Source: Enterobacter ludwigii (GTDB lineage: Bacteria; Pseudomonadota; Gammaproteobacteria; Enterobacterales; Enterobacteriaceae). From it: a stretch of 64,000 nt of DNA. The notes under the pieces were generated by a model. The model worked only from the letters and a program-made list of their open reading frames with translations, was not told the DNA's origin and searched no databases. Each line of letters opens with the position of its first letter. The stretch's first letter is position 1. The stretch spans positions 4,464,001 to 4,528,000 of the forward strand of contig NZ_CP017279.1 of the NCBI RefSeq assembly GCF_001750725.1, in the 5' to 3' direction. This document shows, one piece after another, positions 16,307 through 31,958 of the stretch. Made by a program: the position numbers and the translations under genes.

Positions 16307-17518
16307 TTACGCCCGGATTGCTGCTGCGCGACGCATGCGCAGCAGCAACATGCCTCCTGCCAGCAGGGTGATAACCTGCGAGACGACCAGCACCGAAAAA
16401 CCGGAGCTGACTGAACCCACCGATTTCATCACCATCCCCATCAGCAGCGGAATAAACGCCGCGCAAATATTCCCAATCCCGTTGATGATCCCGTAGGCAC
16501 TGCCAACGGCTTCCCGCGCCGCATGATGCTGGATAACCGCCGGAATGGCTGCCCCCTGAAGTCCCCAGAAAATATTGGCCGAGAGCATAAACAGCGCCAG
16601 CCAACCGGGCTGGTGGCTCAGCATCAGCATGACGACGGAACTCGCCGTTAAGATCCCGCCCACCACAAACAGCAGCGGTGCCTGGTCCGGGCGCATTTTG
16701 TCGAGCAGCACACCGCCCAGAAACTTTGAGCCAAGACTCAGCAGGAAGGGGATAGCCGCGAGAAAGCCGGTCGCGTGCAGGGAGAAGTGGTGTTCATCGC
16801 GCAGCCAGGCCGGAAGCCAGGCGCTGCTGCCCCAGAGATAACTCAGCGTGGCGATTTCAACCAGCAGGATCCAGCCCAGAAGCGGCGTCTGCCAGGCAAG
16901 CGTAAAGGTCTGCACAAACCCGGACGTTCGGCGCTTTTCCGAATGTTGAGGGGCCGGCAGGAAACGCCAGATTAACCCCCCACCCAGCGCCAGATTGATC
17001 GCCGCGAGGGCATAAAATGAGCCCGCCCAGCCAAGGTGTGCCATCAGCCAGGTGATCAGCGGAAAGCCTACCGCCAGCCCCAGTGAAACGCCCAGCGCGG
17101 TAACGGCGTTGGGCTTGCCAATCTCCCCGGCGCTAAAGTTATCGCTGATAAAGCGTGTTTTCAGTGAAAAGAGTGGGCCTTCGGCAATGCCTAAAATCAG
17201 GCGGGCGATAAGCATGCCCATCAGCGACCCCAGCAGTGGCGAGATGGCGCAGACCACGGCCCATATCGCAATGCTGATTAACAATCCCTGTCGATAATGT
17301 AATTTGCTTTCGATAACTGGGGTCAATAGTAAAGCGGAAAAACCATAACCCAGCAAAAAGCAGGTCATGAGCATTCCTTGTAACATTCTGTTTTCATTTA
17401 GCTGAAAATGTTCGGCAAATCCAGGGTTTAAAATCATCACCGAGATATTTACGCGGTCAACGTAGGAAATAATAATGAGCACCAGAAGTGCCAACGTGCC
17501 TTGCCATCTTGCCGTCAT
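16307..17518 (-). CDS. MFS transporter, anion:cation symporter type
   Basis: 403 aa with a twelve-helix MFS pattern. The first helix ends in SYVDRVNISVM, and the LGIAEGPLFSLKTRFISDNF segment is typical of the anion:cation symporter branch that takes up organic acids (hexuronates, phthalate, phenyl acids). It converges with speB, leaving 3 bases, and is divergent from the Rieske operon across a 417-base control region. I infer that it imports a substrate or intermediate of that pathway. The exact substrate cannot be told. Confidence 0.82.
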   Translation of the reverse strand: MTARWQGTLALLVLIIISYVDRVNISVMILNPGFAEHFQLNENRMLQGMLMTCFLLGYGFSALLLTPVIESKLHYRQGLLISIAIWAVVCAISPLLGSLMGMLIARLILGIAEGPLFSLKTRFISDNFSAGEIGKPNAVTALGVSLGLAVGFPLITWLMAHLGWAGSFYALAAINLALGGGLIWRFLPAPQHSEKRRTSGFVQTFTLAWQTPLLGWILLVEIATLSYLWGSSAWLPAWLRDEHHFSLHATGFLAAIPFLLSLGSKFLGGVLLDKMRPDQAPLLFVVGGILTASSVVMLMLSHQPGWLALFMLSANIFWGLQGAAIPAVIQHHAAREAVGSAYGIINGIGNICAAFIPLLMGMVMKSVGSVSSGFSVLVVSQVITLLAGGMLLLRMRRAAAIRA

Positions 17519-17599
17519 TTAATCCGCCTTAATCGTGCTGTCTGTTTATATTTTTTATGAACGTTATTGTCACGTAACTAAAATGATTAACCTGTGAAA

Positions 17600-17616
17600 C
17601 TCATTGTTTTAATGAG
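17600..17616. promoter_or_regulatory. Inverted repeat in the divergent control region
   Basis: CTCATT-GTTTT-AATGAG, perfect 6-base arms. It lies about 80 bases upstream of the MFS start and directly after a TGAAAC half-site (17595-17600). It may be part of an operator for the cluster regulator or for another factor. Confidence 0.4.
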
Positions 17617-17631
17617 ATAAATTAAATTAAA

Positions 17632-17647
17632 GTTTCACAGGTGAAAC
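17632..17647. promoter_or_regulatory. Putative IclR-type operator, MFS-proximal
   Basis: GTTTCACAGGTGAAAC, a perfect 7-base inverted repeat around AG. It shares the frame GTTTCA-N4-TGAAAC with the site at 17901. It lies 114 bases upstream of the MFS start, in the AT-rich region between the divergent transcription units. Assignment to the IclR protein encoded at 20359 is inference. Confidence 0.6.
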
Positions 17648-17849
17648 ACCAGAGGTATGCGCGCATATAATTTTTAAGGAATAAAAATAAAAGAAGTCAA
17701 TCTCTATTTTAAAAAATAAAAGATCATCAAAAAAATGTATTCATTCACGCCTGAATAATGAAAATTTCATATCGCTGCATTTTTTCGTGATCGCTTGCAC
17801 ACTTAGCTAATTAAACCTCTACTGATTAACAAATTCGTCACATTCGCGC

Positions 17850-17877
17850 TTGACGAAACATTCTTCGCTTTTATATT
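17850..17877 (+). promoter_or_regulatory. Probable sigma-70 promoter of the Rieske operon
   Basis: TTGACG (17850-17855), a 16-base spacer, then TATATT (17872-17877). Transcription would start near 17884, about 50 bases before the ferredoxin gene. The palindrome at 17901 would then sit just inside the transcribed leader, a good place for repression. Confidence 0.55.
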
Positions 17878-17900
17878 GACCGTATTAAATAAGAAACAGA

Positions 17901-17916
17901 GTTTCATATATGAAAC
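17901..17916. promoter_or_regulatory. Putative IclR-type operator, operon-proximal
   Basis: GTTTCATATATGAAAC, a perfect 16-base palindrome ending 9 bases before the ribosome binding site of the ferredoxin gene. It has the same half-sites and spacing as the site at 17632. The rest of the 416-base gap (17519-17935) is AT-rich and carries no gene that I can support. Confidence 0.65.
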
Positions 17917-17935
17917 AAAAGCCTGGAGGATCGTG

Positions 17936-18259
17936 ATGAGCTGGATAGGCGTATGTGACGCAGAACAAGTACAGGAAGATTTCCCTTTTAGCGGTAACGT
18001 CGAGGGCAAAGAGATCGGCGTTTATTTGATTGATGGCGAATATTACGCGCTGGAAGACGTATGCCCGCACGCTTACGCGCTGCTGAGTCAGGGTTTTGTC
18101 GAGGACGGTAAAGTGGAATGTCCGCTGCATGAGGCGGTTTTCGATGTCAAAACCGGCCAGTGCCTGCACGGCCCCGGCGGACGTAACCTCAATCGTTACC
18201 CGGTTCGGGTATTTGAAAACCAGATCCAGATTACCTTCGTCGAGGAGACAGTGGCATGA
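17936..18259 (+). CDS. Rieske-type ferredoxin of a ring-hydroxylating oxygenase
   Basis: 107 aa from ATG 17936, preceded by a strong GGAGGA. It is a single Rieske [2Fe-2S] domain with Cys43-Pro-His45 and Cys62-Pro-Leu-His65, the standard CxH-x16-CxxH arrangement. It should carry electrons from the reductase encoded at 22149 to the oxygenase encoded at 18575. It resembles BphF/CarAc-type soluble ferredoxins and also NirD-like proteins, but the neighbours decide for an oxygenase partner. It is the first gene of the operon; its TGA overlaps the next ATG. Confidence 0.88.
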   Translation: MSWIGVCDAEQVQEDFPFSGNVEGKEIGVYLIDGEYYALEDVCPHAYALLSQGFVEDGKVECPLHEAVFDVKTGQCLHGPGGRNLNRYPVRVFENQIQITFVEETVA

Positions 18260-18564
18260 GCGAAAGTCTGAACTTCAACCCGGCGCTGCCGGAAAGCCGT
18301 CAGTTTACCCCTCCGGCTGAGGGCGGTAACGGCGCCATCCATAAGCCCGGTGATTACCAGAACCTGATCTGGCAGACCCGCAGCCGCGTACCGGAAAACT
18401 GGGAAATCACGCTTATCTCCACGCTGGAAGACCTTTTCGAACAGGGCGCGGAAACCGTGCCGGAACTGGTCAACGGGCTGAACGCGGTACGTATGCACGA
18501 TCAGCAGGGCGAGCCATGGAGCGATGCCAGCTTCCAGGCTTTCTTACAGGTTAACGGCTACTGA
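18256..18564 (+). CDS. 102-aa conserved protein of the Rieske operon, function unknown
   Basis: It starts with an ATGA overlap on the ferredoxin gene and ends 10 bases before the oxygenase gene, so it is firmly embedded in the operon. The protein is acidic and soluble with no signal peptide, no cysteines and no metal motif. The C-terminal half (about 50-102) looks helical: LEDLFEQGAETVPELVNGLNA, then a SDASFQAFLQVNGY end. I recall similar small proteins in such clusters being labelled as having a recombinase-like helix-turn-helix, but cannot check this. It does not look like the beta subunit of a dioxygenase. It could be an accessory or assembly factor. Confidence 0.7.
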   Translation: MSESLNFNPALPESRQFTPPAEGGNGAIHKPGDYQNLIWQTRSRVPENWEITLISTLEDLFEQGAETVPELVNGLNAVRMHDQQGEPWSDASFQAFLQVNGY

Positions 18565-18574
18565 GGGCAATGCG

Positions 18575-19597
18575 ATGACGACTACCGTACAAAACTATCT
18601 TGATAAAGGTCTGCGCGGCCTCTGGTACCCGGTGCTGGCGAGCTGGGAAGTTCAGTCTGCGCCCGTGGGGATCACCCGTCTGGGCGAACAGATTGTGGTC
18701 TGGCGCAACAAAGATGGCCAGGTGCAGGCGCTGGAAGATCGCTGTCCGCACCGTGGCGCGCGTCTGTCGATGGGCTGGAATCTGGGCGATCGTATCGCCT
18801 GCTGGTATCACGGCGTGGAAGTGGCGGGCAACGGCGAAGTGAAGGATGTGCCTGCAGTGGACAAATGTCCGCTGGTCGGCCAGCAGTGTGTGCGCAGTTA
18901 CAACGTGCAGGAAGTGCACGGGGCCATCTTCCTCTGGTTTGGCGTTACCGCCGATCAGCAACCCGACGAACTGAGCTTCCCGGACGAACTGGCTGACACT
19001 GACGCCTACAGCAATTTTCTCTGCACCGCCGCGTGGAAATGCAATTACCAGTACGCACTGGAAAACGTGATGGACCCGATGCACGGCACCTATCTGCACT
19101 CTTCGTCGCACTCCATGGCTGAAGGGGATCGCAAAGCGGATATGGTTCTGCAGCCAACGAAAACCGGGTTTATCTTCGAGAAAAAAGGCCAGAGCGGCGT
19201 CAACTTCGACTGGGTTGAGCTGGGCAACAGCGGCACCTACTGGATGCGTTTGTCCATTCCTTATAAGAAGTGTTTCGGGCCGGGCGGTCACTTCTTCATT
19301 GTTGGCATGGTGGTGCCGGAAGATAACGATAACTGCCGCGTCTTCTTCTGGCGTATCCGCCGCGTGCAGGGCTGGCAGCGCGATATGTGGCGTTTCATGT
19401 ACCGTAACCGTCTGGAAAAACTGCACTGGGAAGTCCTTGAGCAGGACCGCGTGGTGCTGGAGAGCATGGCGCCAGATGCACGGGAACACGAATACCTTTA
19501 CCAGCATGATGTGGGCCTCTCGCGCCTGCGCCGCATGATGCAAAAAGCGGCGAAAGAGCAGCTGGCGGCGCGTGAAGCTCAGCAGGGAGCCGCCTGA
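18575..19597 (+). CDS. Aromatic ring-hydroxylating oxygenase, alpha subunit (Rieske non-heme iron)
   Basis: 340 aa from ATG 18575 with GAGGG upstream; the frame extends to 18524 without support. The Rieske domain is N-terminal with Cys57-Pro-His59 and Cys76-x2-His79. The catalytic domain shows EN-x2-Asp167-x2-His170-x4-His175 (ENVMDPMHGTYLH), the mononuclear iron ligands and the bridging Asp. At this length and without a beta-subunit gene it belongs to the alpha-only group (phthalate, carbazole or vanillate type). It likely inserts O2 into an aromatic acid, using the operon's ferredoxin and reductase. Its TGA overlaps the next gene by one base. Confidence 0.9.
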   Translation: MTTTVQNYLDKGLRGLWYPVLASWEVQSAPVGITRLGEQIVVWRNKDGQVQALEDRCPHRGARLSMGWNLGDRIACWYHGVEVAGNGEVKDVPAVDKCPLVGQQCVRSYNVQEVHGAIFLWFGVTADQQPDELSFPDELADTDAYSNFLCTAAWKCNYQYALENVMDPMHGTYLHSSSHSMAEGDRKADMVLQPTKTGFIFEKKGQSGVNFDWVELGNSGTYWMRLSIPYKKCFGPGGHFFIVGMVVPEDNDNCRVFFWRIRRVQGWQRDMWRFMYRNRLEKLHWEVLEQDRVVLESMAPDAREHEYLYQHDVGLSRLRRMMQKAAKEQLAAREAQQGAA

Positions 19598-20346
19598 TGA
19601 ATGGGCTGCTGAACGGGAAACGCATCGTGGTGACCGGTGCCGCGCGTGGGCTGGGCTTTCATTTCGCGAAAGCCTGCGCAGAGCAGGGCGCGGCGGTGGT
19701 GATGTGCGACATCCTTCAGGGCGAACTGGCTGAAAGCGCGCATGGCTTAAGTGAGAAGGGCTATGCGATTGAATCACACGTTATCGATCTGGCCGATCCG
19801 CTCTCCATTTCGCGGGTGTTCAGCGCCATTGGCGAACAGGGACCGATCGACGGTCTGGTCAATAACGCGGCGATGGCGACCGGGGTCGGCGGCAAGGACA
19901 TGCTTGATTACGATCCGGATCTGTGGGACCGGGTGATGAGCGTTAACGTCAAAGGCACCTGGCTGGTTACCCGGGATGCGGTACCGCTGCTGCGCGAAGG
20001 GGCAGCCATTGTCAATGTGGCTTCCGATACCGCGCTGTGGGGCGCGCCGCGCCTGATGGCCTACGTAGCCAGCAAGGGCGCCGTGATTGCCATGACCCGT
20101 TCAATGGCACGTGAGCTGGGTGAAAAACGCATTCGTATTAACGCCATCGCCCCGGGCTTAACCCGCGTCGAAGCGACGGAATATGTCCCTGCAGAGCGGC
20201 ATCAGCTTTACGAAAACGGCCGGGCGCTCACCGGGGCGCAGCAGCCGGAAGACGTCACCGGCAGCGTGGTCTGGCTGTTAAGCGATCTGTCGCGGTTTAT
20301 CACCGGACAGCTGATTCCGGTCAACGGCGGTTTTGTCTTTAACTGA
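19597..20346 (+). CDS. SDR oxidoreductase, likely cis-dihydrodiol dehydrogenase
   Basis: 249 aa. A classical short-chain dehydrogenase with TGAARGLG (13-20) for NAD binding, NNAA (89-92) and the catalytic Ser143, Tyr156 and Lys160 (YVASK). Coming directly after the Rieske oxygenase, it is the natural candidate for rearomatising the cis-dihydrodiol to a catechol, which the extradiol enzyme encoded at 21226 could then cleave. That role is inferred from position. Its start shares one base with the preceding stop. Confidence 0.85.
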   Translation: MNGLLNGKRIVVTGAARGLGFHFAKACAEQGAAVVMCDILQGELAESAHGLSEKGYAIESHVIDLADPLSISRVFSAIGEQGPIDGLVNNAAMATGVGGKDMLDYDPDLWDRVMSVNVKGTWLVTRDAVPLLREGAAIVNVASDTALWGAPRLMAYVASKGAVIAMTRSMARELGEKRIRINAIAPGLTRVEATEYVPAERHQLYENGRALTGAQQPEDVTGSVVWLLSDLSRFITGQLIPVNGGFVFN

Positions 20347-20358
20347 GGTAAAGCAAAT

Positions 20359-21147
20359 ATGGCAAGCGATCACGAAGTGAAGTACCTGGTGCCCGGGCTG
20401 GAGCGAGGCTTACAGCTGCTGCTGGCCTTTGGCGAGCAGCACCGTGAACTGACCTTTGCCGAGCTGCACAGGCTGGTCGATATGCCGAAAGCCACCGCCT
20501 ACCGCGTGGTACAAACGCTGGAATACATGGGTTTTCTGGAGCGCAACACGCGAACCAATACCTTCTCACTTGGCATGAACGTCCTGCGTCTGGGCTTTGA
20601 ATACATCGCCTCACTGGATGTGGCGCAGGTCGGTCAGCCGGTCATCGAGCAGCTGCGTGACGTCAGCCAGTGCAGCAGTCATCTGGCGATCCGCGACGGG
20701 CGCGACATCATCTATATCGCCCGCGTCAGTGCCGCCGGTTCTCGCATCAATCAGGTGAGCATTGGTACCCGTTTGCCGGTGCACTGTACGTCGCTGGGAC
20801 GCATGCTGCTGACTGATATTTCGCGAGCCGATTTCGAACAGCTGTTCCCGCACGAACGTCTGCCGGGCAACACGCCGGGCCAGATCCACGACCGTGAAGC
20901 GTTGTGGCAGATGGTGCAGCAGGACAAAGCACGCGGCTATGTGATCGGCGAATCCTTCTTCCGTCATGGCATCTCCTCCATCGTTTATCCGGTGTATGAC
21001 CGCAGCGGAAGGGTGGCAGCCGTGGTGAGCATTCTGGTGCCTTCGGAGGAGATCCCGCAGACCGATCGCGAGCGCCTGCAAAACGATGTCCGCATGGCGG
21101 CGGATAAAATTTCTGGCTTCTTAGGGTATTTGTCACAGGCCAGTTAA
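20359..21147 (+). CDS. IclR family transcriptional regulator of the ring-cleavage cluster
   Basis: 262 aa. N-terminal winged helix (about 14-80: GLERGLQLLLAF, LTFAELHRLVDMPKATAYRVVQTLEYMGFLER in two parts) followed by the IclR effector domain (CSSHLAIRDGRDIIYIARV, HCTSLGRMLLTD, RGYVIGESFFRHGISSIVYPV). Members of this family sense aromatic acids and act as repressors or activators. It lies inside the operon, so it is probably autoregulated. The GTTTCA-N4-TGAAAC palindromes at 17632 and 17901 are its likely targets. Confidence 0.9.
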   Translation: MASDHEVKYLVPGLERGLQLLLAFGEQHRELTFAELHRLVDMPKATAYRVVQTLEYMGFLERNTRTNTFSLGMNVLRLGFEYIASLDVAQVGQPVIEQLRDVSQCSSHLAIRDGRDIIYIARVSAAGSRINQVSIGTRLPVHCTSLGRMLLTDISRADFEQLFPHERLPGNTPGQIHDREALWQMVQQDKARGYVIGESFFRHGISSIVYPVYDRSGRVAAVVSILVPSEEIPQTDRERLQNDVRMAADKISGFLGYLSQAS

Positions 21148-21225
21148 ATCATCAGGTTAACGCCAGGCGCTTCATTGCGTCGGGCATGTTTTACGCCCAA
21201 TCTGGGCCAGACGAGGCAACGAACG

Positions 21226-22152
21226 ATGTGTATAACCGGAATTGAAAAGCTGGAATTTGGCGTCGAAAACCTGACGCACTGCGCCAAATTTATGCGTGAT
21301 TTTGGCCTGACGGGCGATGCCAGCGGCCAGCGTTTTACTACCCTGAGCGGCGCGCGTGTGGAGCTTAATCCTGTCGACAGCCCTGACCTGCCGCCAGCGT
21401 TTGAAGCAGGAAATACGTTGCGCCGGATGACCTGGGCAGTCGCCACCCGGGACGATCTGGAGGCGCTGCGCCCGAAGCTTGAGAAGCAGCCCGGTTTTCG
21501 TGAGGTGGGCGACGCGCTGGAGTGCCGCGATCCGAACGGCATGACCCTGCGCGTACAGGTCAGCCATCAGGTGCCGGTGGAGCTGAACGTCGAGCCGATT
21601 AACCAGTGGGGCGATGCCCGCCGTATCGACACGCCAAGCCCGGTCTACGATCGCGCCCAGCCTATTAACGTGGGCCACGTGGTGTTCTTCGTGGAGGAGC
21701 TGGCGGCGGTGGAGACGTTCTACCGTGAGGTGCTTGGGTTCCAGGTGTCTGACCGCTACATCAACCGTGCGGTGTTCCTGCGCTGTGGCGTGCGCGGCGG
21801 GCATCACAACCTGTTCCTTCTTCAACTGCCTAACCGTAAGCGGGGGCTGAACCACGTGGCCTTTACCGTACGCGACATTCACGAGGTGATCGGCGGTGGG
21901 ATAGCGATGAACAAAAACGCCTGGAGCACCTTTATTGGCCCGGGGCGTCATCCGGTCTCCTCGGCCTATTTCTGGTACGTCAACAGCCCAACCGGCGGGG
22001 CGTTTGAATACTACACCAACGATGATTACCTCACCGAAAACTGGCAGCCGCGCGAGCTGGAACATTCGCTGGTGTCGTTCACCGAGTGGGCGGTAGAGGG
22101 TGGGATTGACCACGACACTCGCCGTCAGCAGAAAAAGCCGGAGGCGGTATGA
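21226..22152 (+). CDS. Type I extradiol dioxygenase, BphC-like (VOC superfamily)
   Basis: 308 aa from ATG 21226 (MCITGIEK), with GAGG 9 bases upstream; the frame to 21175 is not needed. Two VOC domains; the C-terminal one carries the metal ligands His151 (VGH), His210 (LNH) and Glu261 (AFE). Further active-site positions match as well: His194, His242 and Tyr251, close to the numbering of BphC (146/210/260, 195, 241, 250). It should cleave a catechol next to the hydroxyls. The start lies 78 bases after the regulator; its TGA overlaps the reductase ATG. Confidence 0.9.
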   Translation: MCITGIEKLEFGVENLTHCAKFMRDFGLTGDASGQRFTTLSGARVELNPVDSPDLPPAFEAGNTLRRMTWAVATRDDLEALRPKLEKQPGFREVGDALECRDPNGMTLRVQVSHQVPVELNVEPINQWGDARRIDTPSPVYDRAQPINVGHVVFFVEELAAVETFYREVLGFQVSDRYINRAVFLRCGVRGGHHNLFLLQLPNRKRGLNHVAFTVRDIHEVIGGGIAMNKNAWSTFIGPGRHPVSSAYFWYVNSPTGGAFEYYTNDDYLTENWQPRELEHSLVSFTEWAVEGGIDHDTRRQQKKPEAV

Positions 22153-23336
22153 CCTCGCGCATTGTCATTATTGGCGGCGGTCAGGCAGGTGGCTGGGCGG
22201 CGAAAACCCTGCGTGACGAAGGCTTCGACGGCGAGATTTGCGTCGTGGCGGAAGAGGCGTGGGATTTCTACGAACGCCCGCCGCTGTCCAAGGCTGCGTT
22301 ACTGGAGCCGGACGCGCCGCTACCGCGTCTCTTTCCTGAAGCGGCGCAACAGGCATTGAACCTGATATGGTGCCGGCCGGTGCGCGCGGAATCTCTCGAT
22401 CGTCACGCGAAAACGGTGCGCTTAAGCAACGGTGAATATCTTAGTTACAACATTCTATTAATCGCTACCGGTGGTCGGGCGCGTCTGCCGGGCGACGCAT
22501 GGGCGGCCCACCCGCAGGTCTATACCCTGCGCCACTGGCAGGACGCACAGCGGCTGAAGGCGCGCCTGGCAGAGAGTCAAAACCTGGCGATTATCGGCGG
22601 AGGCTGGATTGGCCTGGAGATTGCGGCCTCCGCGCGTAAATGTGGCGTCGCCGTGACGCTGTTTGAGCAGCAGCCCGCGCTGTGCATGCGTTCGGTGAGC
22701 GCCGAGGTATCGCAGCAGCTGGAAACACTTCACCGCGAACAGGGCGTGGATATCCGCACCGGCTGCGGAGCGCTGGAGCTGGAAGATAACAATGGTCTGC
22801 CGGTCATTTACTGTGACGGCAAGCGTGAAACCTTTGATGCCGTGGTCGTCGGGATCGGTGTTGATCTCAATCTCGAGCTGGCACGTGATGCGGGTCTGCA
22901 GACTGAGCGCGGGATCGTGGTGGACGCTCAGGGGCGAACGTCGGATCCGTTTATTTTTGCTGCCGGTGATGTGGCCCAGCACCATCACTATGGGCTGTGT
23001 ATTCAGTCGTGGGCCTTTGCCCAGAATCAGGCGGTTGCCACGGCAAAGGCGATGCTCAATCCCGATGCCCCCGGCTATGACGACGCGCCGTGGCTGTGGT
23101 CGGATCAATACCAGCACAACATTCAGATCCTCGGTATTCCGCAGGCCGGCTGCACAACCCTTGCCCGGGATAATGCGCTGTTTTTCTCACTGGATGAAAA
23201 CGGACGGCTGACCCAGCTGGTGGCGTTCAACGATGCGCGTACCGTCAAGCTGGCGAAGCGCTGGATGGCTGCCGGAAGGGATCTGTCCGATGTGCCGCTG
23301 GCTGACCCGACTTTTTCACTGATGTCATTGCGATAG
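22149..23336 (+). CDS. FAD/NADH-dependent ferredoxin reductase of the oxygenase system
   Basis: 395 aa. FAD-binding GGGQAGG (9-15), NAD-binding GGGWIGLE (150-157), and the second FAD contact DPFIFAAGD (about 268-276) with a C-terminal SWAFAQNQA segment. This is the BphA4/rhodocoxin reductase type. It passes electrons from NADH to the Rieske ferredoxin encoded at 17936. Its ATG overlaps the extradiol enzyme's stop (ATGA). Confidence 0.9.
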   Translation: MTSRIVIIGGGQAGGWAAKTLRDEGFDGEICVVAEEAWDFYERPPLSKAALLEPDAPLPRLFPEAAQQALNLIWCRPVRAESLDRHAKTVRLSNGEYLSYNILLIATGGRARLPGDAWAAHPQVYTLRHWQDAQRLKARLAESQNLAIIGGGWIGLEIAASARKCGVAVTLFEQQPALCMRSVSAEVSQQLETLHREQGVDIRTGCGALELEDNNGLPVIYCDGKRETFDAVVVGIGVDLNLELARDAGLQTERGIVVDAQGRTSDPFIFAAGDVAQHHHYGLCIQSWAFAQNQAVATAKAMLNPDAPGYDDAPWLWSDQYQHNIQILGIPQAGCTTLARDNALFFSLDENGRLTQLVAFNDARTVKLAKRWMAAGRDLSDVPLADPTFSLMSLR

Positions 23337-23361
23337 CTAACCCGCACCCGTAGGGGGAGAC

Positions 23362-24618
23362 ATGACCACATTTGAGACTAACACCGCGCCGGTTGAGGCA
23401 AGCGGTGAGGGCACCCGCACGCCCGAAAAAGCGGTGCGCTGGGCCATTCCGCTGTCATTGCTGGCCTGCGTACTGCTGGCATTTTTCGACAAAATCAGCA
23501 TTGCGGCGCTCTTTTCCGACAGCCATTTCCAGCAGGCGATGGGCATTGATTTTGACACCACGCGCCTCGGTATTCTGATGAGCGCCTTCCTGCTGAGCTA
23601 CGGCTTCTCATCGGTCTTTTTAAGCGGACTGGGGGACAAGATTGCACCGCTTCGCCTGCTCACCGGCATGATGGTGGTGTGGTGCGTGCTGATGGTGGCC
23701 ATGGGGTTTACCCATAACTACACGGTCATGATCGTCCTGCGCATTTTGCTGGGCGTGGCAGAAGGGCCGCTGTTTCCGCTGGCGTTTGCCATTGTGCGGC
23801 ATAACTTCCCGCAGCATCTGCAGGCGCGAGCCACCATGTTGTGGCTGCTGGGTACCCCGGTAGGCGCGGCGATTGGCTTCCCTCTTTCTATCTGGCTGCT
23901 GAATGCCTTCGGCTGGCAGAGCACCTTCTTTGTGATGGCGATGCTCACCGTGCCGGTGCTGGTGTTCGTGCGCATCGGTCTGCGCGGGATCCGTCTGGGT
24001 GCCAAACCGGCTGCGGATCGCGAATCACAGGATGAACGACGTGCCGCGCGGCGCGAGCTGTTTGTCAGCCCGCACTTCTGGATTATCTGCATCTTTAACA
24101 TCGCGTTTCTCACCTACCTGTGGGGAATCAATGGCTGGCTGCCGGGTTACCTGATTAAAGGGAAAGGCATTCATCTTGAACACGCGGGCTGGCTGTCGTC
24201 GATGCCGTTTATTGCCATGCTGGCGGGTGAGGTGATTGGCGCATGGCTTTCTGACCGGGTCGATAAACGCGCGGCGGCCTGCTTTATCTCGATGGCTGGC
24301 GCGGGGTTAGGCCTGACGGCGGTCATGCATCTTGATACCCCGCTGGCCGTTATCGCGGCGATGAGCTTTAGCACCTTTATGTGGGGCACCGGTGCGCCGA
24401 ACATTTTCGCACTGCTGGCGAAGGCTACCCATCCCCGGGTGAGCGCGACGGCGGGCGGTATTTTCAACGGGCTGGGAAACTTTGCGGGCGCGCTGTCGCC
24501 GGCGGTGATGGGCGCGTTGATCGCCTTCACCCACAGCATGGATTCCGGGCTGATTTTTCTGGCGGTGATGGCGGCGGTGGGCTGCGTCCTGTTACTGCCG
24601 CTGCTGAGACGTTACTGA
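23362..24618 (+). CDS. MFS transporter within the ring-cleavage operon
   Basis: 418 aa with a soluble N-terminal tail of about 30 residues and twelve predicted helices. FFDKISIAALF in helix 1, SVFLSGLGDKIAPLR, and LLGVAEGPLFPLAFAIVRHNF are marks of the anion:cation symporter branch, as in the divergent transporter encoded at 16307, but the two are not near-identical copies. GGGGGAG precedes the ATG. It probably imports the aromatic acid substrate. Confidence 0.85.
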   Translation: MTTFETNTAPVEASGEGTRTPEKAVRWAIPLSLLACVLLAFFDKISIAALFSDSHFQQAMGIDFDTTRLGILMSAFLLSYGFSSVFLSGLGDKIAPLRLLTGMMVVWCVLMVAMGFTHNYTVMIVLRILLGVAEGPLFPLAFAIVRHNFPQHLQARATMLWLLGTPVGAAIGFPLSIWLLNAFGWQSTFFVMAMLTVPVLVFVRIGLRGIRLGAKPAADRESQDERRAARRELFVSPHFWIICIFNIAFLTYLWGINGWLPGYLIKGKGIHLEHAGWLSSMPFIAMLAGEVIGAWLSDRVDKRAAACFISMAGAGLGLTAVMHLDTPLAVIAAMSFSTFMWGTGAPNIFALLAKATHPRVSATAGGIFNGLGNFAGALSPAVMGALIAFTHSMDSGLIFLAVMAAVGCVLLLPLLRRY

Positions 24619-24628
24619 GGAGAGTGTC

Positions 24629-25159: not shown

Positions 25160-25168
25160 GGGGGCGCG

Positions 25169-25939
25169 ATGACGGGCTTTCGTGAACAGGGAAGCGGCAT
25201 CCCGTTGATGCTGCTCCACGGCATCAGCTCCGGCGCTGCCTCCTGGCATAAACAGATGGCGCTGAACGGTTTTCGCGTACTGGCGTGGGACATGCCCGGT
25301 TATGGCGAAAGCCCGATGCTGGCGGTTGAGCGCGCCAACGCGGGGGATTACGCCGACGCGCTGGCGGCCATGCTGGATCGCGCGGGCGTCTGGCAGGTCG
25401 TTCTGGTCGGGCATTCGCTTGGGGCGCTGGTGGCAAGCGCCTTTGCGGCGAAGTATCCCGAACGCGTGCTGCATCTGGTGCTGGCCGATGCCGCGCAGGG
25501 TTACGGCCAGGCCGAGCCGGCGCAGCGCGAGCAGGTCTGGCGTAACCGGGAGCAGCAGATGGCGCTTGGGGGCGAGATCCTAGCGCAAACCCGGGCCGCT
25601 AAATTATTACGCCCGGGCGCGCGTGAGGACGATATTGCCACCGTTGCGGCGGGCATGCGCAAACTGCGCCCGGAAGGCTACCTCGCTGCCGCATGGATGC
25701 TGGCACATGACGATATTCACGGCTGGCTGAAGCGTTACGCCGGTGACTTTGAAGTCTGGTGCGGCGAGCAGGACGCCATTACCCAGCCTGAGCTGGTTCA
25801 GGGGCTGGCGCTACGTTACGGCATGCCGTTTACCGCGATTCCCCTGGCCGGGCACGCCAGCTATCTCGATAACGACGCGTTTTTTAATCAACAGCTTTTA
25901 CGTATCAACGAAGAGGTGCGCGATGAATGCACAAATTGA
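25169..25939 (+). CDS. Alpha/beta hydrolase, candidate meta-cleavage product hydrolase
   Basis: 256 aa. Catalytic triad Ser83 (GHSLG), Asp202 (GEQD) and His229 (AGHASY); oxyanion hole near LLHGISSG (15-22). It resembles the BphD/MhpC group in size and layout. Next to an extradiol dioxygenase, a C-C bond hydrolase acting on the ring-fission product is the most likely role, but esterases look the same at this level. The end overlaps the next gene by 17 bases. Confidence 0.82.
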   Translation: MTGFREQGSGIPLMLLHGISSGAASWHKQMALNGFRVLAWDMPGYGESPMLAVERANAGDYADALAAMLDRAGVWQVVLVGHSLGALVASAFAAKYPERVLHLVLADAAQGYGQAEPAQREQVWRNREQQMALGGEILAQTRAAKLLRPGAREDDIATVAAGMRKLRPEGYLAAAWMLAHDDIHGWLKRYAGDFEVWCGEQDAITQPELVQGLALRYGMPFTAIPLAGHASYLDNDAFFNQQLLRINEEVRDECTN

Positions 25940-26717
25940 CGGGCGCGTAGCGGTAGTCACCGGCGGTTCTTCTGGCATTGGTTTTGAAACACTGCGCTTG
26001 CTGCTGGGCGAGGGGGCAAAAGTGGCGTTCTGTGGCCGCGACCCGGACCGGCTTGCCAGCGCGCATGCGTCGCTGCAAAACGAATTCCCTGATGGCGAGA
26101 TTTTCTCTCACCGCTGCGACGTGCTGGATGCAGACCAGGTTCAGACCTTTGCCCAGGCCGTTAAGTCCCGCTTTGGCGGGACAGACTTGCTGATTAATAA
26201 CGCCGGACAGGGGTATGTGGCGCACTTCAATGACACCCCGCGCGAGGCCTGGCTGCATGAAGCCGAACTGAAACTATTTGGGGTGATTAACCCCGTGCAG
26301 GCTTTTCAGCCGCAGTTGGAGCAATCGGACATTGCCTCCATTACCTGCGTGAACTCGCTGCTGGCGCTGCAGCCAGAGGAACACATGATTGCCACCTCCG
26401 CAGCACGTGCCGCGCTGCTCAATATGACGCTCACGCTCTCGAAAGAGCTGGTGAGTAAGGGTATCCGCGTGAATTCCATTTTGCTTGGCATGGTGGAATC
26501 CGGCCAGTGGCGGCGTCGCTTTGAGAACCGGGCGGATAAAAGTCAGAGCTGGCCGCAGTGGACGGCGGATATTGCCCGCAAACGCGGCATTCCGATGGCG
26601 CGTCTCGGTAAGCCGCAGGAGCCTGCGCAGGCTCTGCTGTTCCTCGCTTCGCCGCTGGCTTCGTTTACCACCGGTGCGGCGCTGGACGTTTCCGGCGGCT
26701 TCTGCCGTCATCTGTAA
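25923..26717 (+). CDS. SDR-fold protein with altered catalytic residues
   Basis: 264 aa from ATG 25923, with GAGG upstream; the frame running back to 25743 lies inside the hydrolase gene and is not coding. The Rossmann part is intact: TGGSSGIG (13-20) and NNAG (92-95). The conserved Ser is Ser145. Thirteen residues on, where Tyr is expected, is Thr158, and the Lys position is Arg162 (TSAAR). It is therefore not a normal SDR dehydrogenase. It may use a different mechanism, act on another substrate class, or serve as a partner subunit. Confidence 0.82.
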   Translation: MNAQIDGRVAVVTGGSSGIGFETLRLLLGEGAKVAFCGRDPDRLASAHASLQNEFPDGEIFSHRCDVLDADQVQTFAQAVKSRFGGTDLLINNAGQGYVAHFNDTPREAWLHEAELKLFGVINPVQAFQPQLEQSDIASITCVNSLLALQPEEHMIATSAARAALLNMTLTLSKELVSKGIRVNSILLGMVESGQWRRRFENRADKSQSWPQWTADIARKRGIPMARLGKPQEPAQALLFLASPLASFTTGAALDVSGGFCRHL

Positions 26718-26726
26718 GGACACATC

Positions 26727-27497
26727 ATGAAAAAAATCATGTTAATCGGCTACGGTGCCATGGCGCAGGCGGTCATTGAGCGTCTGCCCGAGCAGGTTGC
26801 CATCGGCTGGATCGTGGCGCGCGAGACGCATCATGCCGCGATTCGCCAGCAGTTTGGCGATGCGGTGGTGGCACTGACCTCGCCCGCATTATGTACGGAT
26901 ACTCCCGATCTGGTGCTGGAATGTGCCAGCCAGCAGGCGGTGGCGCAGTACGGGGAAGCGATTTTACGCCGTGGATGGCATCTGGCGGTGATCTCCACCG
27001 GAGCGCTGGCAGACAGCGCGCTGGAACAGCGTCTGCTTAACGCAGGCGGAAAGCTGACGCTGCTCTCCGGTGCGGTGGCGGGCATTGATGGCCTGGCGGC
27101 AGCAAAAGAGGGCGGGCTTGAGAAGGTGACCTACCAGTCGCGTAAAAGCCCGGCCAGCTGGCGCGGCAGCTATGCCGAACAGCTTATCGATCTTAACGCC
27201 GTGTCCGAGGCGCAGATCTTCTTTGAAGGCAGCGCACGTGAAGCGGCACGACTGTTTCCGGCCAACGCCAACGTGGCGGCGACCGTGGCACTTGGCGGCG
27301 TGGGGATGGATGATACCCGTGTGCAACTGATGGTTGACCCGGCCACTCAACGCAATACCCACACGCTGCACGTCGAAGGGATGTTTGGCGAGTTCCATCT
27401 GGAGCTGAGCGGGCTACCGCTTGCCAGCAACCCCAAAACCTCCACCCTGGCGGCACTCAGCGCGGTTCGCGCCTGCCGTGAACTGACGCAGCGCTAA
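26727..27497 (+). CDS. Aspartate dehydrogenase family protein (NadX-like)
   Basis: 256 aa. NAD-binding GYGAMA (8-13), then the family marks STGALADSAL, LSGAVAGIDGLAAA, NANVAATVAL, the NTHTLHVEGMFGEFHLE segment with the conserved His, and ASNPKTS near the C-terminus. Characterised members oxidise L-aspartate to iminoaspartate/oxaloacetate with NAD(P). Why such an enzyme sits in a ring-cleavage operon is unclear; it may deaminate a pathway intermediate. It is too far from nad genes for an obvious NAD biosynthesis role. Confidence 0.85.
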   Translation: MKKIMLIGYGAMAQAVIERLPEQVAIGWIVARETHHAAIRQQFGDAVVALTSPALCTDTPDLVLECASQQAVAQYGEAILRRGWHLAVISTGALADSALEQRLLNAGGKLTLLSGAVAGIDGLAAAKEGGLEKVTYQSRKSPASWRGSYAEQLIDLNAVSEAQIFFEGSAREAARLFPANANVAATVALGGVGMDDTRVQLMVDPATQRNTHTLHVEGMFGEFHLELSGLPLASNPKTSTLAALSAVRACRELTQR

Positions 27498-27506
27498 GGA
27501 GCGACG

Positions 27507-28976: not shown

Positions 28977-28989
28977 GAAAGGGTGAGTA

Positions 28990-30630
28990 ATGAGCGAAAT
29001 GATAACCGTCGGCGACGCCATCGCCAGAACGCTGGAGCAGTATCAGGTTGAGGCCATCTACGGCGTCATCTCCATCCACAATTTACCCATCGCCGATGCG
29101 GTAGGGCAGCGCGGGAATATTCGCTTTGTACCCGCACGTGGCGAAGCGGGGTCGGTCACCATGGCCGATGCCCACGGCCGTTTTTCCGGGCTCGGCGTGG
29201 CGCTGACCAGTACCGGCGCCGGGGCGGGTAACGCCGTCGGCGCGCTGGTGGAAGCCATGAATGCCTGCACGCCGCTGCTGCATATCACGGGCCAGGTGGA
29301 AAAAGCCTGGCTGGATGCCGACACCGGCTTTATCCACGAAACCCGCGACCAGCTGACCTTCCTGAAGGCCAGCTCAAAACGGGCATACCGCATCAGCAAC
29401 GCGAACCAGGCGATAGCGATCCTTCACAAGGCCATTCAGGAGGCGCAAACTCCGCCGTGCGGGCCGGTTTCCGTGGAGATCCCGATTGATATTCAGGGGG
29501 CGAAAATCCCCGTGTCGCTGATCACCGCTCCGGTGAAACCGACGTCGGTTTCCGCAGTTGATACGACAGTGGTCGACACGCTGTGGGCGCAGCTTAAACA
29601 GGCCAGACAGCCGCTGCTGTGGCTGGGGGGCGGAGCACTTGGTAGCGCTGATGCGGTAAAAAAACTGGCGGATGCAGGAGTGACGGTTATCTCCAGCACC
29701 CACGCGCGCGGCGTGCTGCCGGACAGCCATCGCGCCAGCCTGCGGGCGTTTCATAACTCGCCGTCAGTTGAGGCGTTGATCGCCCAGTGCGACTTTACGC
29801 TGGTCGCTGGCTCACGCCTGCGCAGCAACGAAACCCGCTCGTGGACGCTTGAATTACCGCATCCCCGCGTCCAGATTGATATCGACCCCGCGGCGGCGAG
29901 CCGCAACTATCTGATGGACACAACCCTTGTGGCCGACTGCGCGGCGCTGTTAACCGCGCTGGCGGCTAAAGCGCAGGGGCGTGAATGGGGCGATGCACAG
30001 TGGGATACACAGGTGCAGCAGGCGCTGGCGAAAGCCGTTGCGGGACTGCGTGAGCAGTGCGGTGCTTATGCGAAGCTCAACGACGCCATCGAGAACGCGC
30101 TGCCGCAAGATGGCCTGCTGGTCCGTGATATCACCGTATCCGGAAGCCTGTGGGGCAGCCGTTTGTTCCGCGCCAACGGACCGCTGATGAACATTCACTC
30201 GCTGGCAGGCGCCATCGGCATGGGGCTACCGATGGCGATTGGCACGGCGATTGCCAACCCGCAACGCAAAGTGGTGGGGCTGGTGGGCGATGGTGGCGTA
30301 AGCCTGAATCTGGGCGAGATGGCAACGCTGGCGCAGGAGAAGGCCAACGTGACGCTGCTGGTGATGAACGACGGCGGTTACGGCGTCATGCGCGGCATTC
30401 AGGATAAGTATTTCGGCGGGCGTCAGTATTATAACGAGCTGCATACCCCGGACTTTACACAGCTGGCGCATGCGATGGGGTTACAGGCGTGGAGCGTCGA
30501 ACGGGCGGAGGATTTTGACGCGGTGATGACCGAAGCGCTTGCCATGCCAGGACCGTCGGTAGTGGAAGTGCGGATGGGACAGATTGGCGCGCTTAAGTTT
30601 GCCGGGCCGCCGCAGAAGACGTTGTACTAA
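28990..30630 (+). CDS. ThDP-dependent 2-oxoacid decarboxylase/synthase family protein
   Basis: 546 aa with the three-domain layout of acetolactate synthase and benzoylformate decarboxylase. The catalytic Glu is Glu52 (ARGEAGSVTMAD). The ThDP/Mg motif GDG is at about 432-434, followed by ND near 461 (VMNDGGYG). The conserved GAGAGNAVGALVEA region is present. In this setting a decarboxylase making an aldehyde for the neighbouring ALDH is the best guess; carboligation is also possible. It is the last gene of the rightward operon and converges with the porin gene. Confidence 0.85.
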   Translation: MSEMITVGDAIARTLEQYQVEAIYGVISIHNLPIADAVGQRGNIRFVPARGEAGSVTMADAHGRFSGLGVALTSTGAGAGNAVGALVEAMNACTPLLHITGQVEKAWLDADTGFIHETRDQLTFLKASSKRAYRISNANQAIAILHKAIQEAQTPPCGPVSVEIPIDIQGAKIPVSLITAPVKPTSVSAVDTTVVDTLWAQLKQARQPLLWLGGGALGSADAVKKLADAGVTVISSTHARGVLPDSHRASLRAFHNSPSVEALIAQCDFTLVAGSRLRSNETRSWTLELPHPRVQIDIDPAAASRNYLMDTTLVADCAALLTALAAKAQGREWGDAQWDTQVQQALAKAVAGLREQCGAYAKLNDAIENALPQDGLLVRDITVSGSLWGSRLFRANGPLMNIHSLAGAIGMGLPMAIGTAIANPQRKVVGLVGDGGVSLNLGEMATLAQEKANVTLLVMNDGGYGVMRGIQDKYFGGRQYYNELHTPDFTQLAHAMGLQAWSVERAEDFDAVMTEALAMPGPSVVEVRMGQIGALKFAGPPQKTLY

Positions 30631-30639
30631 ACGTGTTTA

Positions 30640-30684
30640 CCCTCACTCGCGCCCTCTCCCTTAGGGAGAAGGGCGGGTGAGGGG
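30640..30684. repeat. GC-rich intergenic palindromic repeat, copy 3
   Basis: CCCTCACTCGCGCCCTCTCCC-TTA-GGGAGAAGGGCGGGTGAGGG folds into one long imperfect hairpin. It sits between the converging ThDP-enzyme and porin genes and may act as a transcription stop or mRNA end stabiliser for both. Confidence 0.65.
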
Positions 30685-30689
30685 CTTAA

Positions 30690-31958
30690 TCAGAACACGT
30701 TAAACGGGTATTCCACGTACGCGCGGATCTCATCCCCGCCCACGTTATAGTCGCTGGCGTTGCTGGACACACGCAGGACGGAGTAACGGAGTTTCAGTTT
30801 CAGATCTTTAGCCGGGCCGTCCTGCACCTGATACTGGATCTGGTTAAACCACTCATGCTCTTTACCGTTGCTGGTTTCAGAGGTCTTGATGTTGTCGCCA
30901 CGCACGTAAGCAGTTGTCCAGCTCAGGCCTGGTAAACCCAGACCGCCGAAGTCCAGTGCGTAAGAAGCCTGCCATGAGCGCTCGTCTTCGCCGTTGAAAT
31001 CAGACCAGTAGGAGTTCGCCAGCCAGATGGTATTGCCGCCGTCACCTACGCCACCCTGATCGCGATAGCTGCCATAGTGATAGCCGGTGCTGCCGCTGCT
31101 CTGCTGATACGCCACCTTGAAGGTATGAATATCCCAGATGTAGCTTGCCGCCAGGCTCCAGATGCTATTGCTGCGTCCGGTATCAAGGCTGTCTGCGTAG
31201 CGCTGATCCAGGCGTGAGTTATAGCCGTTGAAATCGAGCACCAGCTGTTGCCCGGTGCTGAACGGCTGTTTGAAGTTCATTCCCAGGTACTGCTTGTTCA
31301 TCACCTCTTCCACATGAGAGGCATACAGCGCACCGCTGAACTGGTCGTTGAACTGGTAGCTCGCACCGCCGAAGGAGAGGCTCTTCAGGCCGCTGTCGTG
31401 GCGGTCGTCACTTTTGCGCTGCTCATCGGTGAAGTAACCGGCGTTCACTTCCAGACCCGTGATTTCTTTTGATGTCAGCATGGTGCCGGTAAAGCTTTCA
31501 AACAGCAGACGGGAATTGTCGGCATTCACAATCGGTAATTCCGGACGCTGGTTACCGTAGCTCAGCACGGTATTGGAAATACGCATTTTTGCTGTGGCGC
31601 CAAATTTCGCCAGATCGGATTTAGCCCGGCCATCGTCTTCCTGTTTAAAGAAGTCAATGCCGCCCGCGCCGCTCTTTCCACGACCGCCGTCCAGACGCAC
31701 GCCATACTGGGCAATGCCGTCCACACCAAAGCCAACCAGCCCTTCGGTATAGCCGGATTCAAACGTGGCAACGATGCCCTGACCCCATTCGGCTTTGTCC
31801 TGCTGACCCTGATGATAATCACGGCTGATATACGCATTGCGTAAAAACAGATCTAAATGGCTGTCATCAACAAACCCTTTGCTGTCGGATTGCTGGCTTG
31901 CAACGGCGGGTAATGCGGCGAATAAACTTAACGCAATTAATGATAATTCTTTTTTCAC
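30690..31958 (-). CDS. OprD-family outer-membrane porin
   Basis: 422 aa. Signal peptide of about 20 residues (MKKELSLIALSLFAALPAVA), then GFVDDSHLDLFLRNAYISRDY, the typical OprD start. Many alternating amphipathic strands follow, and the chain ends in the aromatic FNVF, the outer-membrane assembly signal. OprD/Occ porins admit amino acids or aromatic and other carboxylates. At the edge of the block it is likely the outer-membrane entry for the pathway substrate. This family is common in pseudomonads but less so in enterics. Confidence 0.88.
   Translation of the reverse strand: MKKELSLIALSLFAALPAVASQQSDSKGFVDDSHLDLFLRNAYISRDYHQGQQDKAEWGQGIVATFESGYTEGLVGFGVDGIAQYGVRLDGGRGKSGAGGIDFFKQEDDGRAKSDLAKFGATAKMRISNTVLSYGNQRPELPIVNADNSRLLFESFTGTMLTSKEITGLEVNAGYFTDEQRKSDDRHDSGLKSLSFGGASYQFNDQFSGALYASHVEEVMNKQYLGMNFKQPFSTGQQLVLDFNGYNSRLDQRYADSLDTGRSNSIWSLAASYIWDIHTFKVAYQQSSGSTGYHYGSYRDQGGVGDGGNTIWLANSYWSDFNGEDERSWQASYALDFGGLGLPGLSWTTAYVRGDNIKTSETSNGKEHEWFNQIQYQVQDGPAKDLKLKLRYSVLRVSSNASDYNVGGDEIRAYVEYPFNVF

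What the first reader, a model, noticed from the sequence alone, without database searches (positions are those of the whole stretch)
16307..31958. A 15.6-kb oxidative ring-cleavage block inserted between speB and loiP
Rieske ferredoxin, oxygenase alpha subunit, reductase, two SDR proteins, BphC-like extradiol dioxygenase, alpha/beta hydrolase, ALDH and ThDP enzyme lie in one tightly packed rightward run with their own IclR regulator, two MFS carriers and an OprD porin. speB and loiP are neighbours in E. coli. The enzyme set makes a plausible route from an aromatic acid to central metabolism, but it does not match a named pathway that I know (not mhp, hca, hpa, paa, iac or ant). From memory, P. 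aeruginosa has a similar set around its AspDH gene PA3505, with no established substrate.
Basis: partly seen in the sequence, partly recalled or inferred. Interest (0 to 1): 0.85.

Follow-up and report, generated by a model that had tools for sequence, protein, structure and literature searches.

The report
Candidate genes for kynurenic acid breakdown
A conserved run of fourteen bacterial genes looks like the missing gene set that breaks down kynurenic acid, a tryptophan product made by animals and microbes, into ordinary building blocks of metabolism.

Summary
The block is real and at the stated coordinates: a co-directional run of 14 genes plus a divergent MFS gene. OprD is separable: five of seven cluster-less same-genus sites read keep it. 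The set recurs, reshuffled, in gamma-, beta- and alphaproteobacteria and in a Streptomyces, so it is one pathway. Its AspDH is the anchor: the single K. pneumoniae copy has the size and motif of KpnAspDH, published as aspartate/oxaloacetate-specific, so the pathway should release an aspartate-type unit. Some variants add a molybdenum hydroxylase, a NicC-like monooxygenase, arylsulfatase or RidA. Best fit: the kynurenate 'quinoline pathway' known from 1960s enzymology. Dioxygenase, diol dehydrogenase, extradiol cleavage, side-chain reduction, 2-oxoacid decarboxylation and aldehyde oxidation each have a gene; cupin, hydrolase and AspDH could finish the pyridine ring. SDR2 lacks the catalytic Tyr and Lys in 96 of 96 aligned rows, fitting a C=C reductase. 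The substrate is inferred, not shown. Conserved linkage to tryptophan dioxygenase was looked for and not found. Ten open-access searches (six on kynurenate) listed no paper that I recognised as giving these genes.

The parts
16307..17518 (-). MFS carrier (divergent), probable substrate uptake
   Evidence: PF07690 140.9 bits; same position and strand in most Enterobacteriaceae loci
17936..18259 (+). Rieske ferredoxin (107 aa; start chosen by eye)
   Evidence: PF00355; CxH..CxxH; 80 of 80 loci
18256..18564 (+). 102-aa 'recombinase-like HTH' PF20552 protein, likely oxygenase accessory protein
   Evidence: PF20552 71.8 bits; 80 of 80 loci
18575..19597 (+). Rieske oxygenase alpha subunit (OxyA), proposed kynurenate 7,8-dioxygenase (searches used 18569-19597)
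   Evidence: PF00355 and PF19112; Rieske and mononuclear-iron motifs invariant in 16 sequences and present; Foldseek lowest E-value carbazole 1,9a-dioxygenase 4nbb
19597..20346 (+). SDR1, proposed cis-dihydrodiol dehydrogenase
   Evidence: PF13561; Ser, Tyr, Lys in 122 of 123 aligned rows, gap in one
20359..21147 (+). IclR regulator, PcaR/PcaU/PobR-like
   Evidence: PF09339 and PF01614; TIGR02431 169.5 bits, cut-off 284.75
21226..22152 (+). two-domain extradiol dioxygenase (EDO), proposed 7,8-dihydroxykynurenate 8,8a-dioxygenase (start chosen by eye)
   Evidence: PF00903; His151 and His210 in 100, Glu261 in 99 of 101 aligned rows, the rest gaps
22149..23336 (+). FAD ferredoxin reductase, HcaD/AndAa-like
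   Evidence: PF07992 and PF14759; NF042949 317.6 bits, cut-off 450
23362..24618 (+). second MFS carrier
   Evidence: PF07690 193.2 bits
24629..25159 (+). cupin, proposed oxidative pyridine-ring (beta-dicarbonyl) cleavage
   Evidence: PF07883; H93, H95, E100 and R138 invariant in 18 sequences
25169..25939 (+). alpha/beta hydrolase, proposed enamide/lactam hydrolase
   Evidence: PF00561; Ser83 in 98 of 98, His229 in 96 of 98 aligned rows with 2 gaps; solved relatives include 3kxp at 47 bits, not the top hit
25923..26717 (+). SDR2, non-canonical SDR (Thr for Tyr, Arg for Lys), proposed side-chain C=C reductase (start chosen by eye)
   Evidence: NF005468 441.3 bits over cut-off 266; Thr158 in 95 of 96 aligned rows (Ser in one), Arg162 in 96 of 96
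26727..27497 (+). L-aspartate dehydrogenase (AspDH)
   Evidence: PF01958 and PF03447; NF009828 400.5 bits over cut-off 177; GxGxxA motif; only PF01958 match in the genome
27507..28976 (+). aldehyde dehydrogenase, proposed 5-(2-formylethyl)-4,6-dihydroxypicolinate oxidation
   Evidence: PF00171 557 bits; GQxC and ELGG motifs
28990..30630 (+). ThDP enzyme, proposed 2-oxoacid decarboxylase for the oxopropyl side chain
   Evidence: PF02775, PF02776, PF00205; NF005470 821.7 bits over cut-off 495; GDG..N motif and Glu in GEAG
30690..31958 (-). OprD-family porin; neighbour, separable from the catabolic unit
   Evidence: PF03573 403 bits; retained in 5 of 7 cluster-less sites read

Best explanation
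The 14-gene run 17936-30630, with the divergent MFS gene, encodes the aerobic 'quinoline pathway' for kynurenate (4-hydroxyquinoline-2-carboxylate); xanthurenate or quinaldate may feed in where variants carry extra hydroxylases. Proposed steps, all substrates inferred: (1) ferredoxin, reductase and OxyA make the 7,8-cis-diol; (2) SDR1 oxidises it to 7,8-dihydroxykynurenate; (3) EDO opens the benzo ring between C8 and C8a, leaving an oxopropenyl side chain on a 4,6-dihydroxypicolinate; (4) SDR2, which lacks the usual catalytic Tyr and Lys, reduces the side-chain double bond; (5) the ThDP enzyme decarboxylates the 2-oxoacid; (6) ALDH gives 5-(2-carboxyethyl)-4,6-dihydroxypicolinate; (7) cupin and alpha/beta hydrolase open the pyridine ring to 2-oxoglutarate (or glutarate) and aminofumarate/iminosuccinate; (8) AspDH turns the imine into aspartate or oxaloacetate plus ammonia. 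Carbon balance 5 + 4 + 1 CO2 = 10, as in kynurenate. Shown here: gene content, conserved residues, conservation of the set. Shown elsewhere: aspartate specificity of a K. pneumoniae AspDH that is very probably the orthologue. Inferred: the substrate and steps 1-7.
For: AspDH: K. pneumoniae ATCC 13883 has one PF01958 gene, inside this cluster, 26.79 kDa with GYGAMA; published KpnAspDH is 26.8 kDa with GxGxxA, 100% with oxaloacetate or aspartate and 5.5% or less with the other substrates quoted. The set travels together: 66 of 80 loci show all 12 core families other than ThDP within the fetched stretch. Compounds named in text fit a decarboxylase-ALDH pair: 7,8-dihydroxykynurenic acid formed enzymatically from kynurenic acid (title of Taniuchi and Hayaishi 1963), 5-(3'-carboxy-3'-oxopropyl)-4,6-dihydroxypicolinate (compound name in a table), 5-(2'-carboxyethyl)-4,6-dihydroxypicolinate as tryptophan- or kynurenine-derived. 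Variants: molybdenum hydroxylase genes at or near the oxygenase in 5 genomes (all three subunits in L065, L153, L163; cut by contig ends in L172 and L159); a monooxygenase family in 10 loci, 8 with arylsulfatase, the L055 member closest to 6-hydroxynicotinate 3-monooxygenase; RidA beside OxyA copies in L161 and L154 and fused in P0228. SDR2 lacks Tyr and Lys in 96 of 96 aligned rows, some from one genome.
Against: No conserved linkage to tryptophan genes: tryptophan dioxygenase family found in 46 of 72 cluster genomes (22 of 36, 24 of 36), not in the window's genome; near the cluster only in the few cases I worked out by hand, and the two canonical ones also carry kynureninase, the anthranilate branch. 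I did not search for kynurenine aminotransferases. The molybdenum subunit is closest to 4-hydroxybenzoyl-CoA reductase; quinoline 2-oxidoreductase ranks fourth. The monooxygenase family also covers salicylate and 3-hydroxybenzoate hydroxylases. OxyA's best PDB sequence hit is a putative phthalate 4,5-dioxygenase and dicamba monooxygenase has a higher TM-score than the carbazole enzymes (0.72 against 0.64 for the top E-value hit); model confidence is low around residues 170-185. The hydrolase's best PDB hit is an esterase; the cupin model is poor with generic matches. CsiD is absent from this genome, against a glutarate product. Of 14 incomplete loci, L042, L056, L065, L074 and L079 miss genes within the stretch held. 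The order of the side-chain steps, the formylethyl intermediate and the end products are recalled.
Confidence: 0.55

Rival explanations
1. Another bicyclic or N-heteroaromatic carboxylate (quinaldate, xanthurenate, a 4-quinolone or a different fused ring) is the physiological substrate, with the same enzyme logic.
For: The same genes suit any benzo-fused N-heterocycle whose hetero ring ends as an aspartate-type unit; variants with Mo hydroxylase or NicC-like monooxygenase suggest substrate diversification.
Against: Mo hydroxylase genes were seen in only 5 genomes of the loci scanned, so the usual substrate should already carry the ring oxygen that later steps need; kynurenate does, quinaldate does not.
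Confidence: 0.2
2. An mhp-like route for an alanyl catechol (phenylalanine, m- or o-tyrosine): extradiol cleavage, then C-C hydrolysis to aspartate plus 2-hydroxypentadienoate.
For: Explains AspDH directly by analogy with MhpB/MhpC, where the side chain becomes succinate (recalled); oxygenase, SDR, EDO and hydrolase are present.
Against: No pentadienoate hydratase or aldolase among the cluster genes of the window; the genome's only TIGR03220 match is about 0.7 Mb away at 208 of 408.8 bits. ThDP enzyme, ALDH and cupin, and the Mo hydroxylase and RidA of variants, would have no clear role.
Confidence: 0.12
3. A general benzenoid aromatic-acid pathway in which AspDH and cupin are incidental.
For: Rieske, extradiol and ALDH genes are common in such pathways; IclR is PcaR/PobR-like.
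Against: AspDH and cupin are in the cluster about as often as EDO (69, 71 and 72 of 80 loci); the Klebsiella AspDH is aspartate-specific.
Confidence: 0.08

Closest known systems
Quinoline pathway of kynurenate degradation (Taniuchi, Hayaishi and others, Pseudomonas extracts, 1960s)
   Same: The intermediates I saw named (7,8-dihydroxykynurenate, oxopropyl- and carboxyethyl-dihydroxypicolinate) call for enzyme types that the cluster has
   Different: Described from enzymology; I recognised no gene paper among the listings of ten open-access searches, so identity at gene level is untested
3-phenylpropionate hca/mhp pathways
   Same: HcaD-like reductase and HcaC/AndAb-like ferredoxin (below cut-offs), extradiol enzyme, alpha/beta hydrolase
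   Different: Oxygenase is a single VanA_C-type alpha subunit; no hydratase or aldolase; extra ThDP enzyme, AspDH, cupin
P. aeruginosa AspDH (PA3505) neighbourhood
   Same: A P. aeruginosa protein of this oxygenase family is on record (P0228, 75% to the L114 query); AspDH of P. aeruginosa PAO1 was characterised (reference seen)
   Different: P0228 is fused to RidA and is a single sequence; the locus was not read here
Riboflavin/lumichrome catabolism (Lum)
   Same: Thiamin enzyme, Rieske dioxygenase and extradiol enzyme acting on an N-heterocycle (passages)
   Different: Oxygenase has alpha and beta subunits; 'aspartate' does not occur in the text

Membership tests
Kynurenate quinoline pathway | Ring dioxygenase system plus diol dehydrogenase (gene types) | tested here: met
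   Ferredoxin, reductase, OxyA and canonical SDR1; substrate not tested
Kynurenate quinoline pathway | Extradiol ring-cleaving dioxygenase (gene type) | tested here: met
   PF00903 with His/His/Glu triad
Kynurenate quinoline pathway | 2-oxoacid decarboxylase and aldehyde dehydrogenase for the side chain (gene types) | tested here: met
   ThDP enzyme and ALDH present and recurrent; activity not tested
Kynurenate quinoline pathway | Activity on kynurenate | not testable with these tools
   Needs enzyme assay or growth test
Kynurenate quinoline pathway | Linkage to tryptophan dioxygenase (supporting, not defining) | tested here: not met
   Family in 46 of 72 cluster genomes, absent from own genome, close to the cluster only in a few cases
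hca (3-phenylpropionate dioxygenase) | HcaE-type alpha subunit above curated cut-off | tested here: not met
   33.7 of 830 bits
hpa (homoprotocatechuate) | HpaD and HpaE above curated cut-offs | tested here: not met
   78.7 of 321.4 and 452.2 of 638.35 bits
And (anthranilate 1,2-dioxygenase) | AndAc-type large subunit above curated cut-off | tested here: not met
   22 of 750 bits
mhp-type meta-cleavage | 2-oxopent-4-enoate hydratase with the cluster | tested here: not met
   None among the cluster genes; one sub-cut-off match elsewhere in the genome, 208 of 408.8 bits
NadX/AspDH family | AspDH domains and curated model | tested here: met
   PF01958 109.5 bits; NF009828 400.5 over cut-off 177
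iac (indole-3-acetate) | iac gene set | not tested
   No iac model was searched by name; none is in the family tables, of which the longer ones show only the best 25

The most novel reading that the evidence does not exclude
This is the missing gene set of the kynurenate quinoline pathway, with two new enzyme types: a Tyr-less, Lys-less SDR that reduces the C=C of the ring-cleavage product, and a cupin with an HxHx4E motif that oxidatively cleaves a cyclic beta-dicarbonyl pyridine to a 2-oxoglutaryl enamide, which the hydrolase splits into 2-oxoglutarate and iminosuccinate for AspDH. Its presence in Klebsiella, Enterobacter, Serratia, Yersinia and Acinetobacter genomes would make common gut and environmental bacteria sinks for a host-active tryptophan metabolite.
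Probability: 0.35. Interest if true: 0.85.

Novelty: new variant of a known kind. Interest (0 to 1): 0.68.

Why it matters
Kynurenate breakdown was described enzymatically around 1961-1963 (titles seen), but I found no paper naming its genes in the open-access library. Kynurenate acts on host receptors (recalled), so knowing which bacteria can remove it matters for studies of tryptophan metabolites in the gut. The cluster also offers a physiological home for bacterial AspDH enzymes, which the one paper opened treats as biocatalysts, and a testable substrate for a Rieske family that records call phenylpropionate dioxygenase or vanillate demethylase.

Tried and rejected
Linkage to tryptophan dioxygenase and kynureninase as substrate evidence: rejected. 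The family is in 46 of 72 cluster genomes. Close cases that I worked out by hand, not for all 46: G263 (about 26 kb from OxyA, about 10 kb from the nearest cluster gene), Zobellella endophytica (about 30 kb), both with kynureninase; and two Marinobacterium genomes (about 7 kb), where the gene is a divergent PF03301 protein at 170.9 of 390.7 bits (scored in L061 only).

AspDH as an aromatic-amino-acid dehydrogenase: set aside because the Klebsiella enzyme is aspartate-specific among the substrates tested.

Glutarate with CsiD downstream: less attractive, CsiD not found in this genome; not excluded.

Orphan-enzyme survey PMC1940265 as support for an orphan EC number: no use; the two matches were other numbers (1.14.99.24 and, in the passage shown, 1.14.99.22). 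PMC5307852: the match was 1.14.99.29.

Cupin structure: low-confidence model, generic matches. Promoter scan of 17400-18000: 3 sites against 2.2 by chance. 4-Hydroxypyridine paper PMC7356986: different enzymes (passages). Not opened: PMC11585892, the one paper holding 'kynurenic acid', 'Rieske' and 'gene cluster' (listing), and most titles listed.
Full report
WHAT IS THERE. From 17936 to 30630 lie 14 co-directional genes: ferredoxin, a 102-aa PF20552 protein, oxygenase alpha subunit (OxyA, start at 18575), SDR1, IclR, extradiol dioxygenase (EDO), reductase, MFS carrier, cupin, alpha/beta hydrolase, SDR2, AspDH, ALDH and ThDP enzyme. All but the carrier are the 13 'core' families counted below. 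A divergent MFS gene precedes them and an opposing OprD gene follows. Expected catalytic motifs are present.

THE SITE. speB and loiP are adjacent in E. coli ECCWS199, and the block gave no megablast match in the 5,426-genome E. coli collection. In the window's genus 22 of 36 genomes carry OxyA. In the 14 without it, the SpeB-LoiP distance is 50-236 bp in 7 and about 1.5-1.7 kb in 7. I read 7 of the 14 sites: five keep oprD, with homology ending at window 16305-16311 and 30689-30692; two have neither. The catabolic unit is therefore about 14.4 kb and OprD is separable. Klebsiella has the block at the same place, and Serratia silvae has it near an agmatinase gene, so an old location with losses is at least as likely as a recent insertion.

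DISTRIBUTION. Of these 80 loci, 66 show all 12 core families other than ThDP in the stretch held; ThDP is in view in 46. Of the 14 incomplete loci, nine are cut by a contig end or the flank; L042, L056, L065, L074 and L079 miss genes within the stretch and may be rearranged or partial. Saccharospirillum L055 was completed with the adjoining stretch L168. In an even draw of 398 genomes of the phylum 15 carry OxyA; in 300 of one order, partly the same genomes, 12; and 26 of 72,556 plasmid records. Gene order is reshuffled between groups but the set persists, with weaker matches to nearly all of it in a Streptomyces plasmid (L165). This is one pathway, not a chance grouping.

THE ANCHOR: AspDH. 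PMC5554190 (passages) reports KpnAspDH from K. pneumoniae 34618: 26.8 kDa, GxGxxA motif, NADPH-preferring, 100% with oxaloacetate or aspartate against 5.5% or less with the other substrates quoted, and a Km of 52.6 mM for ammonium. K. pneumoniae ATCC 13883 has a single PF01958 gene, inside this cluster; it is 26.79 kDa with GYGAMA and 87% identical to the window's. The published sequence itself was not available, so the link is very probable, not proven. The pathway should thus release aspartate, iminosuccinate or aminofumarate.

ACCESSORY GENES. Molybdenum hydroxylase genes sit at or near the oxygenase in 5 genomes: all three subunits in L065, L153 and L163; two in L172 and one in L159, both at contig ends. 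In Caballeronia NK8 they belong to a second oxygenase/ThDP/EDO module a few kilobases from a full cluster. A flavin monooxygenase family occurs in 10 loci (L055-L059, L069, L115-L117, L177), 9 of them with a TRAP carrier gene and 8 with an arylsulfatase; the L055 member, used as the query, is closest to 6-hydroxynicotinate 3-monooxygenase in the PDB and lies with the others inside the run. RidA, an imine/enamine deaminase family (recalled), follows OxyA in L161, follows a second, more distant OxyA copy in L154, and is fused to OxyA in one P. aeruginosa protein. An ortho-hydroxylase plus sulfatase would fit xanthurenate (8-hydroxykynurenate) and its sulfate entering at the same catechol; this is inference.

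MECHANISM. Compounds of kynurenate breakdown that I saw named are 7,8-dihydroxykynurenic acid (title of Taniuchi and Hayaishi 1963 in the reference list of PMC5610271, whose text says a degradation pathway was suggested in P. fluorescens), 5-(3'-carboxy-3'-oxopropyl)-4,6-dihydroxypicolinate (a compound name in a table of PMC11364965) and 5-(2'-carboxyethyl)-4,6-dihydroxypicolinate (passages of PMC10543884, PMC12007202 and PMC13175069). Their order, the formylethyl intermediate and the end products 2-oxoglutarate, oxaloacetate and ammonia are recalled. Going from oxopropyl to carboxyethyl needs a 2-oxoacid decarboxylase and an aldehyde dehydrogenase: the ThDP enzyme and ALDH. Going from oxopropenyl to oxopropyl needs a C=C reductase: SDR2 has Thr158 (95 of 96 rows; Ser in one) and Arg162 (96 of 96) where SDRs have Tyr and Lys, while SDR1 keeps Ser, Tyr and Lys in 122 of 123 rows with one gap (rows include several per genome in places). 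The remaining pyridine ring holds carbons for C5 plus C4; lactam and C4-C5 cleavage give a C5 diacid and aminofumarate. If the cupin cleaves oxidatively, as some cupin dioxygenases do with beta-dicarbonyls (recalled), the C5 product is 2-oxoglutarate; if cleavage is hydrolytic it is glutarate. The cupin has invariant H93, H95, E100 and an Arg at the usual last His position in 18 sequences. The hydrolase's solved relatives include alpha-(N-acetylaminomethylene)succinate hydrolase 3kxp at 47 bits, below its best hit, an esterase at 70 bits.

ALTERNATIVES AND RESULTS AGAINST. An alanyl-catechol route would also give aspartate but needs a pentadienoate hydratase and aldolase, absent from the window's cluster; the genome's only TIGR03220 match scores 208 of 408.8. 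The hca, hpa and And models fail their cut-offs. Against my reading: no conserved linkage to tryptophan genes; 4-hydroxybenzoyl-CoA reductase as top relative of the Mo subunit; OxyA's best PDB sequence hit is a putative phthalate 4,5-dioxygenase, and among folds the carbazole enzymes lead by E-value but dicamba monooxygenase by TM-score; no CsiD; an uninformative cupin fold.

LITERATURE. Ten searches of open-access PMC (six of them on kynurenate) listed no title that I recognised as giving genes for kynurenate catabolism or describing this cluster. Most listed papers were not opened, and subscription journals are not covered. PA3505 appears in one Tn-seq paper as predicted essential in 3 of 4 host-like conditions (passages of PMC9732424).

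VERDICT. A widespread, apparently uncharacterised catabolic cluster, best read as the gene set of the kynurenate quinoline pathway (confidence 0.55, unchanged after checking).

Noticed in passing
18256-18564; 80 of 80 loci: The PF20552 'recombinase-like HTH' protein accompanies this oxygenase family; probably an accessory protein rather than part of a recombinase.
   Followed up: partly
L061 1475-2731 (and PF03301 match in L064): A divergent tryptophan-dioxygenase-family protein, in L061 next to a class V aminotransferase-like gene and far below the TIGR03036 cut-off.
   Followed up: partly
P0228: P. aeruginosa protein with a RidA domain fused to the Rieske oxygenase (single sequence).
   Followed up: no
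L004 and L005 (LR134124.1, CP125156.1): PLSDB 'plasmid' records with metK, speA and tkt, chromosomal in content; the second is 5.37 Mb long.
   Followed up: no
G022 and G014, loiP match: The loiP match contains one in-frame stop in each of these two same-genus genomes.
   Followed up: no
G000:C1:849532-849771: The only other PF00355 Rieske match in the window's genome besides the two in the cluster.
   Followed up: no
L173 and L163 (Caballeronia NK8 pNK84): Full cluster just downstream of IS21 genes, with the same ferredoxin and HTH_62 protein accessions repeated in a second module.
   Followed up: no
L161 9756-17405 (Caballeronia M1242): Variant with a VanB-type reductase, RidA and a flavin monooxygenase around the oxygenase.
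   Followed up: partly
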